DNA of 64,000 bases from Alteromonas sp. IB21 (GTDB lineage: Bacteria; Pseudomonadota; Gammaproteobacteria; Enterobacterales; Alteromonadaceae), in assembly GCF_016405965.1 (NCBI RefSeq), contig NZ_JAEFCD010000013.1:1-64000 (forward strand), read 5' to 3'. Made by a program: the position numbers and the translations under genes. Shown one piece after another: positions 59,007 through 64,000 of this stretch. The notes beneath the pieces are model-generated. The model worked only from the letters and a program-made list of their open reading frames with translations, did no database searches and had not been told where the DNA came from. The number at the start of each line of letters is the position of its first letter. Position 1 is the first letter of the stretch.

Positions 59007-59318
59007 ATGACAGGTATTGATGGTGTAGGCTCTGCGTTTGCAGCCGCCCAATATGGTTTACAAAGTGCAAGCGATGGCATTTCGCAAGCGGCATCGAATA
59101 TTGCTCAGCGTACCGCTGAAGACGCGGTTGCGCCCGCTCAACCCATTGCAGCTAATACCGACACAAATAACGCGACGCCTAATTCAACATCTTCCACCTC
59201 ACGTTTAACTGACGATTTAATTGCGCTTAATGTAAACGAGCGCAATGCACAGGCGTCCGCCAAAGTGCTCGGTGTTGCCGACGAGATGCTCGGCACTATT
59301 ATTGACGTGCTGGCGTAG
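59007..59318 (+). CDS. Small protein resembling flagellar rod/FlgC C-terminus
   Basis: The 103-aa product starts after a GGGGGTAG ribosome-binding site. Its N-terminal helix (GLQSASDGISQAASNIAQ) and C-terminal ALNVNERNAQASAKVLGVADEMLGTII pattern match the D0 helices of axial flagellar proteins such as FlgB/FlgC. The middle is a short Asn/Thr/Ser-rich linker. No rod or hook body is present. The next gene begins 14 bp later and encodes a SprA-type HExxH protein. The relation to flagella is structural guesswork, and no other flagellar gene is here. Confidence 0.55.
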   Translation: MTGIDGVGSAFAAAQYGLQSASDGISQAASNIAQRTAEDAVAPAQPIAANTDTNNATPNSTSSTSRLTDDLIALNVNERNAQASAKVLGVADEMLGTIIDVLA

Positions 59319-59332
59319 GCGGAGAAGTCGCA

Positions 59333-60271
59333 GTGAACATCGTCACGCCAATTCTAAACGCCATTGCATACCCTACGGCAAACATAAACACAGAATCTGC
59401 GCGCAGAGATAACGTGCAGCGGGAAACTATTCCCCAGACGTCAGATTCACAGCAAGGCGCTTCTCAGAAAGGCCTAGGGTCTGAAGCCGATAAGGCCAAA
59501 AGCCCGGGTCAGCCGCCAGCACCGGTTACTTATGAACGTCCTCAGATACAAACTGACCTTCAAGCTGCTTTCCAAAACGTCTTTGGGCAAGAAAAAGACA
59601 ATGCGCAGGATGAAAGTGCGGGCAAACAGGACGCGCAAGATAAGCAACAAGAACAGCAAGAGAAACAAGACGCCGCTGAAATTGAACAGTTAAAAGCCCG
59701 AGATCAGGAAGTAAGAGTTCACGAGCAAGCGCATGCTGCAACGGGCGGTCAATATGCTGGTGCGCCGCAGTATGAGTACACCACTGGCCCTGATAATAAG
59801 CGTTACGTCACCGGTGGTCAGGTATCTATTGATGTTTCAGAAGAAAAAACGCCCGAAGAAACGCTGAAAAAAATGGAACAAGTGCGTGCTGCCGCACTTG
59901 CGCCGGCAGAGCCTTCATCACAAGATTTAAAGGTAGCCGCTGAGGCATCTCAAAAGGCCACCGAAGCACGAAGCGAGATTGCAAAAGGTCAGGTTGAAGG
60001 TTTTTCTACAGAGCAGACTTCTGTCGAAGACGCTTCTACGAATAGTGTTAATAACATTTCGGGCAATGGGACGATAGCACAGCCAGAAGCGAGTCCAGGT
60101 ACCGTTGGTGACGCGGTGCTAGAAGCCCAGTCTAGGTTCTCAGACGCTACAACTTTACAAGGGCTTGGGGCCAACGAATCTGATTTTATGCAGGCGCGAA
60201 TTGGCCGAATTCAAAGCGCTTATTTACAAGCCTATACGCCATCAAGAGAGGGCTTATCGCTCCAAGCGTAA
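59333..60271 (+). CDS. SprA-related putative metalloprotease
   Basis: The 312-aa protein starts at GTG 59333, with GGAGAA just before it. It has a disordered N-terminal third (Pro, Ser, Gln-rich), a Gln/Lys/Glu-rich coiled segment (about 90-120), then VRVHEQAHAATGG at 128-140. The HEQAH of that motif matches a zinc HExxH site. The GAPQYEYTTGPDNKRYVTGGQVSIDV block that follows is diagnostic of the SprA-related family (PF12118). A C-terminal tail of about 100 residues is Ala/Ser/Glu-rich. There is no classical signal peptide. The substrate is unknown; it is paired with the flagellar-like small protein. Confidence 0.75.
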   Translation: MNIVTPILNAIAYPTANINTESARRDNVQRETIPQTSDSQQGASQKGLGSEADKAKSPGQPPAPVTYERPQIQTDLQAAFQNVFGQEKDNAQDESAGKQDAQDKQQEQQEKQDAAEIEQLKARDQEVRVHEQAHAATGGQYAGAPQYEYTTGPDNKRYVTGGQVSIDVSEEKTPEETLKKMEQVRAAALAPAEPSSQDLKVAAEASQKATEARSEIAKGQVEGFSTEQTSVEDASTNSVNNISGNGTIAQPEASPGTVGDAVLEAQSRFSDATTLQGLGANESDFMQARIGRIQSAYLQAYTPSREGLSLQA

Positions 60272-60296: not shown

Positions 60297-62075
60297 TTAA
60301 TAATCGAGAATTGCCTTCGTAAAGGGGTATTTAGGTGAACCGCCAGTAATGTCTGAAAGCACTGAGTTCATGGTGTCTACATCGCTGTCGAACCCGCCAT
60401 GAGATGTTGCAGCCGTGGCATCACCTTCTTTACCTTCGCTATATTTAAACGTCACGTTAGCAATCGGCTGATTAAATATGGCCATACCTAACAACGGCAT
60501 CTCCGGTTTAGATTCAAACGCGTTTGAGACTAGATAAAGCAGCGATTTTTGGTAAATACGCGCCACATGATCATCTTTTTCCAATACCTCAGATAAGTTG
60601 TAAACCGTGGTCGACTCAATATGGTTTCCCTCAATAAGAGTAGAGAGCTTTTCACTAAATAAAGGGGTGCTAATGGCGGGTGCCAGTAAGTGAAGGCTTT
60701 TAACTTTTATATTTTCGTCAACTTTAAACAGCCTTGATAGGCCGTGCGCATGAAAGATAGAGCCAGCCGAATGACCTACGACGTGTAGCTGAATGTCTGA
60801 GTTATTTCTCAAATAGGCGGCTAACTGCGTGAGAAAGTATGTGCCATCCGACGTGGTTCGGGTAAAAGGCGTGCACGCGTCCGATTTCATTTCACGCCAC
60901 AATGCGCCGCCTACTTTACGCGTTGCCCATTCCAGAATTCTGTCAGTATAGTCGCTGAAAGCACCGACTTTGTTGCTAATCTCTTTATTTTTAAAACCTA
61001 GAATATCCTTTAACTCTTCTAGCATGCCAGTGTCATACATGAAGTGAATGGGGAAAACATCGTTTTTTAGAAACGTATCTTTCATTGCAGCGATACGCTT
61101 AGCCGAGGCTTTTATACTGTTTAAGCCGCCGTGAGCATAAAGCATCACATGGCGATGGTTACTGTCAGATAGTTTCTCAATAATGGTATCTACGTGGTTT
61201 TTGTTGCTCCAATATTTGCTTCTTGTATCAAAGTGTCCGTCGTCGAAATGAACAAAGTGATCTTGAATACTCACGCGCGGCGTGGAGCGAGTGAATAGCC
61301 CTTGTGCAATAGAGCGTGTCGCTTGATGGTAGGTACCGGTACCTGAGATAGGCAGTGCAAGCTGGACAACCCAGGCATCCATAACATTTAATGCCCAGTC
61401 ATCGTAATGCCACAGTGCCAGCCCCGATTTCTTCCAATCCGTCCCCCAGGAGTTTTGGATCCAAAAGCCTTCGTCGTTGTAACCGACAATAGCAAACGCA
61501 TGGCCCCCTATGGGTTCAGGTCTTAAGTTTATTTTATCCCCTTCACCGTCTTTCCAGCCTTCGTGAATTCTGGCAGACACAAAGATAACGCCCACCTCGT
61601 TAAGCGCAGCATGAAAATCGCTGATTTCCCGTTCGATGCGGTAATAGGCCCCTAATCTGTGATTGCTAGCGTTATTAGCAATAGCAAGGGTCATTTCAAA
61701 CTCTTTGCTGTGCTGTATATCTTTAGTCAGTGAGTAGTTACATACACCACTATTGTACCAGCCTTTAATAGCGCCCCGGCAGCTCGAGCCGTCATAGGCT
61801 TCACCCAACCATTCATCGTGTCGTTTCGCCATGGCATAAAGCATCCACGGGCTAACAGTATGCTTTCGGCCCTGCTGACGATAAATGAAATTAATGGTCG
61901 CTGCCAACGCAAAGCCCGTACAGGCTCCATCTTTACCTTGGTCCAAAATGACTAGGTTGCCAGGAGGGTCGATAAAAGGCTTAAGTGGAGTAAGGTTAGG
62001 TTGGTAATAACGGTCCCGAAGGTCGGGGTAGTCGGCGCTGACATTCAGCATGTCTTTTGAAACAGGTAAATTCAT
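60297..62075 (-). CDS. C1-family (papain-like) peptidase fused to an alpha/beta hydrolase
   Basis: The 592-aa product starts after AGAGGA. Residues ~15-240 form a papain-like domain: ILDQGKDGACTGFA places the oxyanion Gln at 46 and catalytic Cys at 52, GGHAFAIVGY has the catalytic His at 192, and IQNSWGTDW has the Asn at 208. Residues ~300-560 look like a lipase-type alpha/beta hydrolase: MLYAHGGLNS, then VVGHSAGSIFHAHG with a nucleophile Ser436. There is no signal peptide or propeptide. Both domains keep their nucleophile motifs, so a two-activity enzyme is possible. Length is unusual for either family alone, and I know of no named relative. Confidence 0.75.
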   Translation of the reverse strand: MNLPVSKDMLNVSADYPDLRDRYYQPNLTPLKPFIDPPGNLVILDQGKDGACTGFALAATINFIYRQQGRKHTVSPWMLYAMAKRHDEWLGEAYDGSSCRGAIKGWYNSGVCNYSLTKDIQHSKEFEMTLAIANNASNHRLGAYYRIEREISDFHAALNEVGVIFVSARIHEGWKDGEGDKINLRPEPIGGHAFAIVGYNDEGFWIQNSWGTDWKKSGLALWHYDDWALNVMDAWVVQLALPISGTGTYHQATRSIAQGLFTRSTPRVSIQDHFVHFDDGHFDTRSKYWSNKNHVDTIIEKLSDSNHRHVMLYAHGGLNSIKASAKRIAAMKDTFLKNDVFPIHFMYDTGMLEELKDILGFKNKEISNKVGAFSDYTDRILEWATRKVGGALWREMKSDACTPFTRTTSDGTYFLTQLAAYLRNNSDIQLHVVGHSAGSIFHAHGLSRLFKVDENIKVKSLHLLAPAISTPLFSEKLSTLIEGNHIESTTVYNLSEVLEKDDHVARIYQKSLLYLVSNAFESKPEMPLLGMAIFNQPIANVTFKYSEGKEGDATAATSHGGFDSDVDTMNSVLSDITGGSPKYPFTKAILDY

Positions 62076-62424
62076 AACATCATCCTCTGATTAGGACTGA
62101 TGATCTTGGTTGTACAGATAAATAAAAAGTGCGTACACCATAGGTCGATAGCCCTTAGCTCGTTACTGTCGTCCGAAAGTGCTGCCTTGAAAACGGCTGT
62201 GGTCAAATGCGCGATATTACCTTCGTTAAACGTTACGAAATTTCGTGAACATTAACGGACTCGCTATACATGAACAACATACAAACTTCGGTTTCGGTAT
62301 GACCAATACCTTTTCACTGTTTCGGTTTTTTAATGTGGCACTCCCTATTCTGGAGTACTTGGAGGCATACATTAGCTATACCTCGGAACTAATGTAGCAA
62401 AAAGGAACAGTCAAATGGAAGTAT
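62076..62424. other. Intergenic region between Tex and the peptidase-hydrolase gene
   Basis: About 350 bp upstream of the C1-peptidase gene hold no credible gene. They should contain its promoter. A perfect 12-bp palindrome ACGAAATTTCGT lies at 62235-62246, extended by near-symmetrical GTT/GAAC flanks, and may be an operator. Otherwise nothing is recognised. Confidence 0.4.
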
Positions 62425-62457
62425 GAAAAAAGGGCCTGTCTAATTGACAGGCCCTTT
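62425..62457 (-). terminator. tex terminator
   Basis: AAAGGGCCTGTC (62429-62440) pairs with GACAGGCCCTTT (62446-62457), a 12-bp perfect stem with 5-base loop. On the minus strand it is followed by a T-run. It lies 37 bp after the Tex stop. Confidence 0.9.
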
Positions 62458-62493: not shown

Positions 62494-64000
62494 TTACTTT
62501 TTCGCTTTAGCAAACGCATCGGCAAACGCGTTGCCCATAGCGCTGTTTTGCGGTTGACTGTTGCGATTGCCGCCACCCTGATTTGAACGTGGGTTAGCGT
62601 TGGAACGGCTAGACGTTTTGTGTTGCGCTTTACCTGTACGCTGGTTATTAGCGCCCTTACCTGAAGCCCCCTTACCTGTAGCGCTATGGCCGCCAGCATT
62701 GTTGCTCTGACTTGGCGTATCATCTAAGCGCATGGTGAAGGAAATACGCTTGCGCGGTACATCTACTTCCAGCACTTTTACTTTAACAATATCGCCCGCT
62801 TTCACCACTTCGCGAGGGTCTGAGATAAACTTGTTAGTCAGTGCGGAAATATGCACGAGTCCATCTTGATGCACACCCACATCAACAAATGCGCCAAAGT
62901 TAGCCACATTGCTGACCACACCCTCTAAGATCATACCCGGCTTGAGGTCGTTTATGGTTTCAACGCCTTCTTTAAACGCGGCAGTTTTGAACTCTGGACG
63001 AGGATCACGCCCTGGTTTGTCTAACTCTTTAAGGATATCTTTTACCGTAGGAAGACCAAATTCGTCGCTGGTAAAGGTATCAGGCGATAAGCTCTTTAGT
63101 AGTTCGGTGTTACCGATAATATCGTTTACCGCAACAGCAGTGGTATCTACAATTTTATCTACCACTGGGTATGCTTCGGGGTGAACTGCCGAGGCATCAA
63201 GTGGGTTTGAGCCGTTTACAATACGAAGGAAGCCCGCCGCTTGCTCGAATGCTTTTGGCCCTAAGCGCTCTACTTTCAATAGCGCTTTGCGGTCTGGGAA
63301 AGCACCGTTGGTATCTCTGAAATTAACAATATTGTGAGCAAGGGTTTTGTTTAATCCCGACACATAGCTTAACAGTGCAGGTGACGCGGTATTTAAATCA
63401 ACACCCACCGCGTTCACACAGTCTTCGATAACACGGTCAAGGGATTTGCCCAACTGACTTTGGCTAACATCGTGCTGATATTGACCTACACCGATGGCTT
63501 TAGGCTCAATCTTAACCAGCTCTGCAAGCGGGTCTTGCAGACGTCGCGCAATTGAAACGGCCCCACGAATGGACACGTCTAGATCAGGCAATTCTTTTGA
63601 AGCAAGCTCAGAAGCAGAATATACCGATGCGCCCGCTTCGCTAACCATAATTTTCTGTGCGGTCAACTCGCTGTTGTTTTTAAGCATTTCGCCAACCAGT
63701 TTGTCGGTTTCGCGCGAGCCGGTGCCGTTTCCAATGCTGATCAAATCTACCTTGTATTGCTTACACAGCGTGGTAAGCGTACGCATAGACTTATCCCACT
63801 GATTCTGTGGTGCGTGTGGGAATATGGTATTGGTTGCGACTACCTTACCTGTGCTGTCTACCACAGCCACTTTAACGCCGGTTCTCAAACCTGGATCCAG
63901 GCCCATCGTGGTTTTTGCACCTGCAGGCGCTGCCATTAGCAGGTCGTTCAGATTTTTGGCAAACACTTCAATGGCTTCTTCTTCGGCTCGCTCTCGTAGC
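62494..64000 (-). CDS. tex: Tex-family RNA-binding transcription accessory protein (partial, N-terminus missing)
   Basis: This reading frame is open to the window edge; the apparent start near 63966 is an internal GTG codon. About 502 residues are present of the usual 770 or so. The YqgF/RNase H-like domain comes first ([20 protein letters not shown]), then helix-hairpin-helix repeats ([32 protein letters not shown]), then an S1 domain ([20 protein letters not shown], with [12 protein letters not shown]). The C-terminal tail is rich in Gly, Asn, Ser and Gln. Tex binds nucleic acid and is tied to transcription control. The N-terminal domains are outside the window. Confidence 0.93.

What the first reader, a model, noticed from the sequence alone, without database searches (positions are those of the whole stretch)
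60297..62075. Single protein joining a papain-like peptidase to a serine hydrolase
Both parts retain nucleophiles: Cys52/His192/Asn208 and Ser436 in GHSAG. There is no propeptide or secretion signal. Two different acyl-enzyme hydrolases on one chain suggest a substrate with both amide and ester bonds, or a toxin- or effector-like role. Its gene stands alone with its own operator-like palindrome upstream.
Basis: partly seen in the sequence, partly recalled or inferred. Interest (0 to 1): 0.55.

Follow-up and report, generated by a model that had tools for sequence, protein, structure and literature searches.

The report
Papain–lipase two-enzyme fusion protein
A marine bacterium carries one protein that joins a papain-type protein-cutting enzyme to a lipase-like enzyme; relatives in other bacteria add wall-cutting or caspase parts, which hints at a built-in kit for taking cells apart, although nobody has tested it.

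Summary
In detail: window 62075..60297, minus strand, 592 aa, xylellain-type papain domain plus alpha/beta hydrolase, both apparently active (C52/H192/N208; S436, with D502 and H559 inferred). It is no one-strain oddity: 12 of 59 genomes of its genus, 16 of 398 sampled from its phylum (12 with the papain part), rhizobial plasmids, Cyanobacteria, a Nitrospinia MAG. In 11 Alteromonas genomes it lies between tex and a conserved convergent gene; 18 of 19 non-carriers examined lack anything there. The exact palindrome occurs only in the window. No type VI or contractile-sheath match was found in 12 carriers, so an injected effector is unlikely. The hydrolase family is nearly always coupled to a cysteine peptidase (14 of 15 genomes: 11 papain, 3 caspase); wall-cutting domains are fused to papain–hydrolase on two branches clearly and a third more weakly. 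In one lineage the hydrolase site is dead, and in four of its seven members the next gene is a GDSL-hydrolase–caspase fusion. Best reading: a cytoplasmic 'demolition' enzyme cutting proteins and membrane lipid esters in programmed lysis or defence, a papain counterpart of the caspase–alpha/beta-hydrolase pairs of bacterial conflict systems. Activity, substrate and trigger are untested.

The parts
60297..62075 (-). C1A papain-type peptidase - alpha/beta hydrolase fusion gene, 592 aa
62013..62033 (-). N-terminal motif D15..D18.R20D21 (DYPDLRD), shared with xylellain; possible regulatory segment (inference)
   Evidence: invariant in 18 of 18 rows and in 55 of 55 rows reaching it; aligned to 3ois
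61350..62036 (-). papain-like domain, about residues 14-242; Q46 61938-61940, C52 61920-61922, H192 61500-61502, N208 61452-61454
61272..61349 (-). interdomain linker, about residues 243-268, mostly of low model confidence
   Evidence: pLDDT under 50 at 239-265
60300..61271 (-). alpha/beta hydrolase domain, about residues 269-592; S436 60768-60770, D502 60570-60572, H559 60399-60401
62429..62457 (-). 12-nt perfect hairpin after tex, terminator-like by eye, separating tex from this gene
   Evidence: not listed by the terminator scan
62273..62328 (-). conserved upstream block with two ACCGAAAC repeats; candidate promoter or regulatory region
62494..63999 (-). tex (part), upstream neighbour
   Evidence: the gene at this place in L016 is Tex by Pfam
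59333..60271 (+). convergent conserved gene (312 aa, HEQAHA-bearing, SprA-like by recall), downstream border of the site
   Evidence: 58 of 59 genus genomes

Best explanation
It is a cytoplasmic two-headed hydrolase: a xylellain-type C1A cysteine endopeptidase joined by a flexible linker to a lipase/esterase-type alpha/beta hydrolase with triad S436-D502-H559. Most likely it is held inactive (the conserved N-terminal D..D.RD segment may cover the papain cleft, as the activation story of xylellain suggests, by recall) and, once triggered by damage, infection or membrane breach, cuts cellular proteins while the hydrolase cuts ester bonds of membrane lipids. Some relatives add a peptidoglycan-cutting domain on the same chain or next door, giving an enzymatic analogue of a lysis cassette. 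Shown by computation: the folds, the kept triads, the partners, the separate fusions, the site in Alteromonas, no match to contractile secretion in carriers. Inferred: activity, lipid substrate, autoinhibition, trigger, and that the target is the cell itself.
For: Triads: Q46, C52, H192 and N208 in 56 of 56 papain–hydrolase sequences; S436 49 of 56 and H559 49 of 56, lost in the same 7; D502 48 of 56, lost in those 7 plus L044; E499 51 of 56; the joint loss points to D502 rather than E499. Purifying selection on both domains: dN/dS 0.011-0.031 (papain) and 0.026-0.064 (hydrolase) against the window in 8 of 9 Alteromonas copies with computable dS; two of the 8 (L017, L048) are the same sequence, and dS is above 1 in most pairs, so the ratios are rough. 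Coupling: 398 phylum genomes gave 15 with this hydrolase family: 11 papain–hydrolase, 2 Amidase_2–hydrolase–caspase (G747, G826), 1 with a caspase gene starting 1 nt downstream (G811, L141), 1 with no peptidase found (G610) (domains and BLAST). N-terminal wall-related domains in 3 of those 11: N-acetylmuramidase (G349, 207 bits), GH19 (G1004, 38.5 bits), and PG_binding_1 at its cut-off with GH19 below its cut-off (G765, 23.0 and 22.6 bits), on three separate branches. A GH108 + PG_binding_3 gene lies at +1 in L119 and L120 and by BLAST cluster in L121 (3 members). No signal-like segment in the 60 rows of the hydropathy screen. Precedent: PMC7159879 (passages): in VMAP systems a caspase domain always has a neighbouring alpha/beta-hydrolase gene; PMC8195603 (passages) lists alpha/beta hydrolases among effectors as acting on membrane lipids.
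Against: The Alteromonas gene has no lytic, sensor or defence partner recognised beside it, and 11 of 12 carriers have no Pfam caspase match, so the cell-death reading rests on relatives. Partners occur in a minority of loci: caspase 5, GH108 3, CHAP 3 of 97 neighbours at +/-1, against caspase 2 of 91 at +/-4 (only 25 families are shown for each, L029 in the control list has an amidase, and other alpha/beta hydrolases are equal, 2 and 2). The +/-1 list includes neighbours of hydrolase-only and caspase-type loci. PADLOC gave no hit. VMAP-C matched in 0 of 12 carriers, but its control genomes did not ring either. The full-length model is mediocre (mean pLDDT 68.5). Foldseek TM-scores of the hydrolase domain are low (query-normalised at most 0.38, target-normalised at most 0.44 in the 50 rows shown). 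No lipid specificity is shown. GDSL–caspase partners and dead hydrolases go together on essentially one lineage.
Confidence: 0.4

Rival explanations
1. Lysis-released or intracellular digestive enzyme (public good or housekeeping recycler) without a death programme: it breaks down peptides and lipids from dead cells or turned-over material.
For: Standalone gene in a marine genus, no partner recognised, no signal-like segment; xylellain-like peptidases are discussed as enzymes for plant colonisation and the substrate of xylellain is unknown (PMC12090721, passages).
Against: Fusion with endolysin-type domains and caspases in relatives, patchy presence, 12 of 59 in the genus, and a tree that mixes phyla.
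Confidence: 0.25
2. The papain domain is the working part; the hydrolase domain is mainly a regulator, localiser or lipid sensor.
For: Papain triad 56 of 56, hydrolase triad lost in 7 of 56 with the domain kept.
Against: 49 of 56 keep S436 and H559; both domains under strong purifying selection in Alteromonas.
Confidence: 0.15
3. Composite-substrate enzyme: one molecule with both amide and ester bonds (for example an acylated peptide) is cut by both sites.
For: Two acyl-enzyme sites kept together in 49 of 56 sequences.
Against: The hydrolase is coupled to caspase instead of papain in 3 of 15 genomes and is dead in one lineage; the partners are a modular set rather than a pathway cluster.
Confidence: 0.1
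4. Injected or secreted antibacterial or host-directed effector.
For: Lipase, amidase and peptidase are classic effector activities (recalled); a Tle1-like phospholipase gene follows one Amidase–hydrolase–caspase gene (L139).
Against: PF05936 in 0 of 12 carriers and 1 of 59 genus genomes (control rings in 1 of 14 genomes); contractile sheath PF04984 in 0 of 12 carriers (control rings in 3 of 14); no signal-like segment; no immunity-gene candidate beside it. Other secretion routes were not searched.
Confidence: 0.08

Closest known systems
Xylellain (Xylella fastidiosa C1A cysteine protease, PDB 3ois)
   Same: Closest solved structure by sequence (profile E 2.3e-19) and by fold (Z 21.9, rmsd 3.6, 224 aligned); same N-terminal D..D.RD segment.
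   Different: The 3ois chain has 291 residues and the match spans 34-287, so no second enzyme; here a hydrolase domain follows. Its reported activation is known to me only from a title in a reference list and recall.
DUF900 / PF05990 alpha/beta hydrolases
   Same: The C-terminal part of the window protein scores over the curated cut-off (28.4 against 20.5).
   Different: Three more distant members score below it (L044, L036, L031: 17.0-18.4 bits). The passage read on DUF900 mentions no fused peptidase, describes an N-terminal membrane helix in one protein and calls the function unknown (PMC11878206).
Caspase + alpha/beta-hydrolase pairs of bacterial VMAP/MoxR-vWA conflict systems (Kaur et al. 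2020, PMC7159879)
   Same: A cysteine peptidase tied to an alpha/beta hydrolase; relatives of our hydrolase domain are fused or adjacent to caspases.
   Different: Here the peptidase is papain-type and on the same chain; no MoxR, vWA or VMAP gene was recognised beside the window gene (by eye), and VMAP-C was not found in 12 carriers (control silent). Whether the two hydrolase families are homologous was not tested.
Protease-activated nuclease pairs (Hachiman/AVAST, Canu; PMC12799240)
   Same: General logic of an effector hydrolase coupled to a protease.
   Different: Separate genes, nuclease effector, shown antiphage function (abstract and passages); nothing of the kind is tested here.

Membership tests
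Peptidase family C1A (papain; xylellain-type) | Pfam PF00112 over cut-off | tested here: met
   23.0 against 20.7 bits
Peptidase family C1A (papain; xylellain-type) | Gln/Cys/His/Asn catalytic set | tested here: met
   Q46, C52, H192, N208 in 56 of 56
Peptidase family C1A (papain; xylellain-type) | papain fold | tested here: met
   3ois Z 21.9, rmsd 3.6, 224 aligned
Peptidase family C1A (papain; xylellain-type) | proteolytic activity | not testable with these tools
   needs protein
Secreted cathepsin-like C1A with signal peptide | N-terminal signal | tested here: not met
   simple hydropathy screen, no signal-like segment; no dedicated signal-peptide program at hand
alpha/beta hydrolase superfamily | fold with nucleophile elbow and Ser-acid-His | tested here: met
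   1zoi Z 12.2, rmsd 3.3, 175 aligned; GHSAG S436, D502, H559; the acid is inferred
DUF900 (PF05990) | score over curated cut-off | tested here: met
   window met; three relatives below it, so the papain-fused group is at the edge of the family
VMAP/MoxR-vWA ternary conflict system | MoxR ATPase, vWA and VMAP core genes alongside | tested here: inconclusive
   neighbours are tex and a 312-aa convergent gene; VMAP-C PF20028 in 0 of 12 carriers but also in 0 of 14 control genomes; MoxR and vWA not searched by profile
VMAP/MoxR-vWA ternary conflict system | cysteine peptidase coupled to alpha/beta hydrolase | tested here: met
   fused papain here; caspase in relatives
Known anti-phage defence gene (PADLOC 2.0) | match to a PADLOC model | tested here: not met
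   0 families at E up to 1
T6SS or contractile-injection effector | secretion apparatus in carrier genomes | tested here: not met
   PF05936 in 0 of 12 carriers; sheath PF04984 in 0 of 12
Effector-associated-domain (EAD) protein | EAD adaptor domain on the chain | tested here: inconclusive
   Pfam at E up to 1 shows four families, none an EAD; I did not check that EAD models are in the library

The most novel reading that the evidence does not exclude
A so far undescribed class of bacterial cell-demolition proteins: single chains, or adjacent genes, that combine a cysteine peptidase (papain or caspase), a membrane-lipid hydrolase and, in some, a peptidoglycan hydrolase, without signal peptides. 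The lipase would open the membrane from inside so that the wall-cutting part reaches its target: an enzymatic executioner of programmed lysis that can do without a caspase. Where a neighbouring GDSL-hydrolase–caspase takes over the ester-cutting job, the built-in hydrolase decays.
Probability: 0.25. Interest if true: 0.78.

Novelty: new variant of a known kind. Interest (0 to 1): 0.5.

Why it matters
If true, bacteria use papain-type peptidases, not only caspases and trypsins, with lipid hydrolases and endolysin-like domains on one chain to dissolve cells. The Alteromonas version is a single gene without recognised partners at a clean site (present in 11 genomes; in 18 of 19 non-carriers examined tex lies directly beside the convergent gene), so the idea can be tested with one deletion and two point mutants in a harmless organism. 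It also offers a hypothesis for DUF900-type hydrolases (function unknown) and for xylellain-type peptidases (substrate of xylellain unknown).

Tried and rejected
Injected effector: disfavoured for Alteromonas. Operator palindrome: exact core only in the window; the block at 62273-62328 is better conserved, but nothing identifies a regulator. The promoter scan found 3 sites against 3.9 in shuffles; the terminator scan found 8 against 2.4, mostly inside genes, and did not list the tex hairpin. Composite amide/ester substrate: weakened by the swapping of partners and by the dead hydrolases. A statistical link between GDSL–caspase neighbours and dead hydrolases: 4 of the 7 dead-site loci have it at +1 (L040, L046, L047, L138), 2 have a fused trypsin domain (L041, L042), and for L039 the record ends before a +1 gene; but the label needs only 1 change on the tree (one joint clade 51/81), so I do not treat it as independent evidence. 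Phage origin: the 3 phage records match only the papain part; one viral-labelled contig has a full homologue (L101), but beyond an integrase-like ORF, so it may be host DNA. Hydrolases L128 (G526, seems truncated) and L189 (G610) had no papain or caspase nearby by my own profiles; those profiles also missed the caspase beside L141 that Pfam found, so this negative is weak. Foldseek against viral models added mainly papain-like and some distant lipase-like matches. The substrate class is not read from structure rows: below the first few, Z values are tied. VMAP-C search: silent in carriers and in controls.

Literature: listings of searches for xylellain, papain-like/caspase-like/trypsin-like/conflict systems/effector-associated domain, DUF900 + peptidase, caspase/hydrolase/peptidoglycan/bacterial gasdermin/zymogen/protease, 'C1 family peptidase' + hydrolase + rhizobium (0 papers), papain/hydrolase/endolysin/caspase/domain fusion/lipase, caspase + GDSL + bacterial + conflict systems (0 papers), Alteromonas + cysteine protease + papain + autolysis. 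Passages, not whole texts, were read in eight papers, also PMC10318531 (papain-like classification) and PMC12419801 (lipocone). Nothing in these listings and passages describes the papain–hydrolase fusion; most subscription journals are not held.

Full report
WHAT IS THERE. The ORF lies on the minus strand at 62075..60297 and encodes 592 aa. Pfam finds Peptidase_C1 (43-220) and DUF900 alpha/beta hydrolase (416-492), both over the curated cut-offs. Two AlphaFold models were made: full length (mean pLDDT 68.5, pTM 0.55) and residues 262-592 (78.9, 0.84). The N-terminal domain matches xylellain 3ois (Z 21.9, 224 aligned; Foldseek E 9.8e-13). The C-terminal domain matches alpha/beta hydrolases, esterase 1zoi (Z 12.2) and A. 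fulgidus lipase 2zyi (Z 12.1) among many near-tied rows; Foldseek alone is weaker (3 matches at E 0.001 or better, all of the A. fulgidus lipase). This shows the fold, not the substrate.

ACTIVE SITES. In 56 papain–hydrolase sequences (window, L016 and L113 of the same genus, and 53 others; not an even sample, two near-duplicates) Q46, C52, H192 and N208 are kept in 56 of 56; S436 in 49, H559 in 49, D502 in 48, E499 in 51. S436 and H559 are lost in exactly the same 7 (L039, L040, L041, L042, L046, L047, L138), and D502 in those plus L044. Their joint loss argues that S436-D502-H559 is the triad and that the other 49 are active. In Alteromonas dN/dS is below 0.07 for both domains in the 8 of 9 pairs with computable dS; L017 and L048 are one sequence and most dS values exceed 1, so these are rough.

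DISTRIBUTION. All counts include the window's own genome where it was in the sample. Genus: 12 of 59 genomes. Family: 15 of 295 genomes have some match, 5 of them over nearly the full length. Class sample: 19 of 369 genomes, 16 with the papain part (one, G638, in two pieces), 3 hydrolase only (G365, G526, G610). Phylum sample: 16 of 398 genomes, 12 with the papain part. Named genomes: 17 loci, among them a Nitrospinia MAG, Rhizobiales, Sphingomonas, Methylobacterium and Roseofilum. Plasmids: 28 records, 10 with 80% or more of the query in one place; Sinorhizobium 9, Rhizobium 6, Paracoccus 4. Phages: 3 records, papain part only. On a tree of the papain domain the Nitrospinia sequence sits with one from the window's class (L118, 98/94), and the two copies on one Rhizobium gallicum plasmid stretch (L044, L044b) lie far apart: horizontal transfer is the simplest reading.

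SITE IN ALTEROMONAS. All 11 carriers with 89% identity or more have the gene beside the convergent 312-aa gene; of 19 non-carrier loci examined, 18 have tex there instead, with no room for the gene, and in one (L187) tex was not found in the stretch held. For the other 29 of 59 genomes no locus was returned and none was examined. The twelfth carrier (G330, 58% identity) has its copy on another contig than that neighbour gene. A single gain at this site in one clade is the simplest reading; loss elsewhere is not excluded. The exact palindrome core occurs only in the window.

PARTNERS. The phylum sample searched with the hydrolase domain alone gave 15 of 398 genomes: 11 papain–hydrolase, 2 Amidase_2–hydrolase–caspase, 1 hydrolase with a caspase gene starting 1 nt downstream, 1 without a peptidase found. 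A third Amidase_2–hydrolase–caspase locus occurs in the class sample, read in two frames (L142). Three of the 11 papain–hydrolases carry an N-terminal peptidoglycan-related region: muramidase (207 bits), GH19 (38.5 bits), and PG_binding_1 (23.0, at its cut-off) with GH19 under its cut-off (22.6 against 25.5); they lie on three branches. Trypsin_2 is fused in L041 and L042. Neighbours at +/-1 (97 proteins, including those of hydrolase-only and caspase-type loci): caspase 5, GDSL 4, GH108 3, PG_binding_3 3, CHAP 3, PG_binding_1 2, heme peroxidase 2, other alpha/beta hydrolase 2; at +/-4 (91 proteins): caspase 2, other alpha/beta hydrolase 2, none of the wall families among the 25 families shown, although one control member has an amidase (L029). 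In four loci (L040, L046, L047, L138) the next gene is a GDSL–caspase fusion (Pfam for L040 and L138; BLAST cluster and motif for L046 and L047), and there the hydrolase of the papain protein is dead. In L033 a GDSL–caspase gene lies four genes away and the hydrolase site is kept, so the association is not a rule. The GDSL–caspase proteins keep GDS and the caspase SGHG or SHGG motif (motif meaning by recall).

INTERPRETATION. The papain set is constant in the fusions; the hydrolase is usually active; wall-cutting and caspase parts are swapped in and out; no signal-like segment was seen in the rows screened. This fits a cytoplasmic demolition enzyme better than a metabolic enzyme or an injected effector. 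It resembles the caspase/alpha-beta-hydrolase pairing reported by Kaur et al. [quoted passage not shown] a companion paper lists alpha/beta hydrolases as acting on membrane lipids (PMC8195603, passages). Membership in those systems is not claimed: no core gene was recognised beside the window gene, and the VMAP-C search was inconclusive. Heme peroxidase + P450 genes near two Rhizobium copies recall fatty-acid dioxygenase modules and would fit a lipase that frees fatty acids; this is inference.

LIMITS. No activity, substrate, trigger or phenotype was tested. Partner counts rest on small numbers and related loci. The Alteromonas gene itself has no lytic neighbour, and 11 of 12 carriers have no Pfam caspase match.

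Noticed in passing
window 62273-62328 (minus strand): A block with two ACCGAAAC repeats upstream of the gene is strongly conserved in seven Alteromonas upstream regions, unlike the palindrome; regulator unknown.
   Followed up: partly
window 59333-60271: Convergent 312-aa gene with HEQAHA motif, matched in 58 of 59 genus genomes, with a small 103-aa ORF beside it (59007-59318).
   Followed up: partly
L035:11762-14664, L044:10922-13839, L039:7022-8905, L136:6016-7917: Animal-type heme peroxidase genes, twice with a cytochrome P450 (in L035 the P450 score is under its cut-off), near papain–hydrolase genes: possible fatty-acid oxygenation module.
   Followed up: partly
L138:3708-7094: One 1128-aa ORF with GDSL hydrolase, caspase and Peptidase_M15 domains, next to a papain protein whose hydrolase site is dead.
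   Followed up: partly
L041:809-7912 and L042:643-7824: Very large (about 2370-2390 aa) ORFs divergent from trypsin–papain fusions on Paracoccus and Roseivivax plasmids; L041's has no Pfam match.
   Followed up: no
L101:7773-10166: A papain–hydrolase homologue (797 aa) on a contig labelled viral, beyond an integrase-like ORF and phage-like DNA.
   Followed up: partly
L139:10118-11524: Tle1-like phospholipase gene (PF09994, 235.6 bits) directly after an Amidase_2–hydrolase–caspase gene.
   Followed up: no
L116:10105-11121 and L130:2894-4006: FGE-sulfatase (formylglycine-generating-like) genes directly downstream of papain–hydrolase genes; an FGS domain is also named for VMAP systems in PMC7159879.
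   Followed up: no
L006-L008, L011, L014: Weakly similar hydrolases in open frames of 479-559 aa in the same bacterial family; L007 begins with a lipoprotein-like signal by eye, perhaps a secreted branch of the hydrolase.
   Followed up: no
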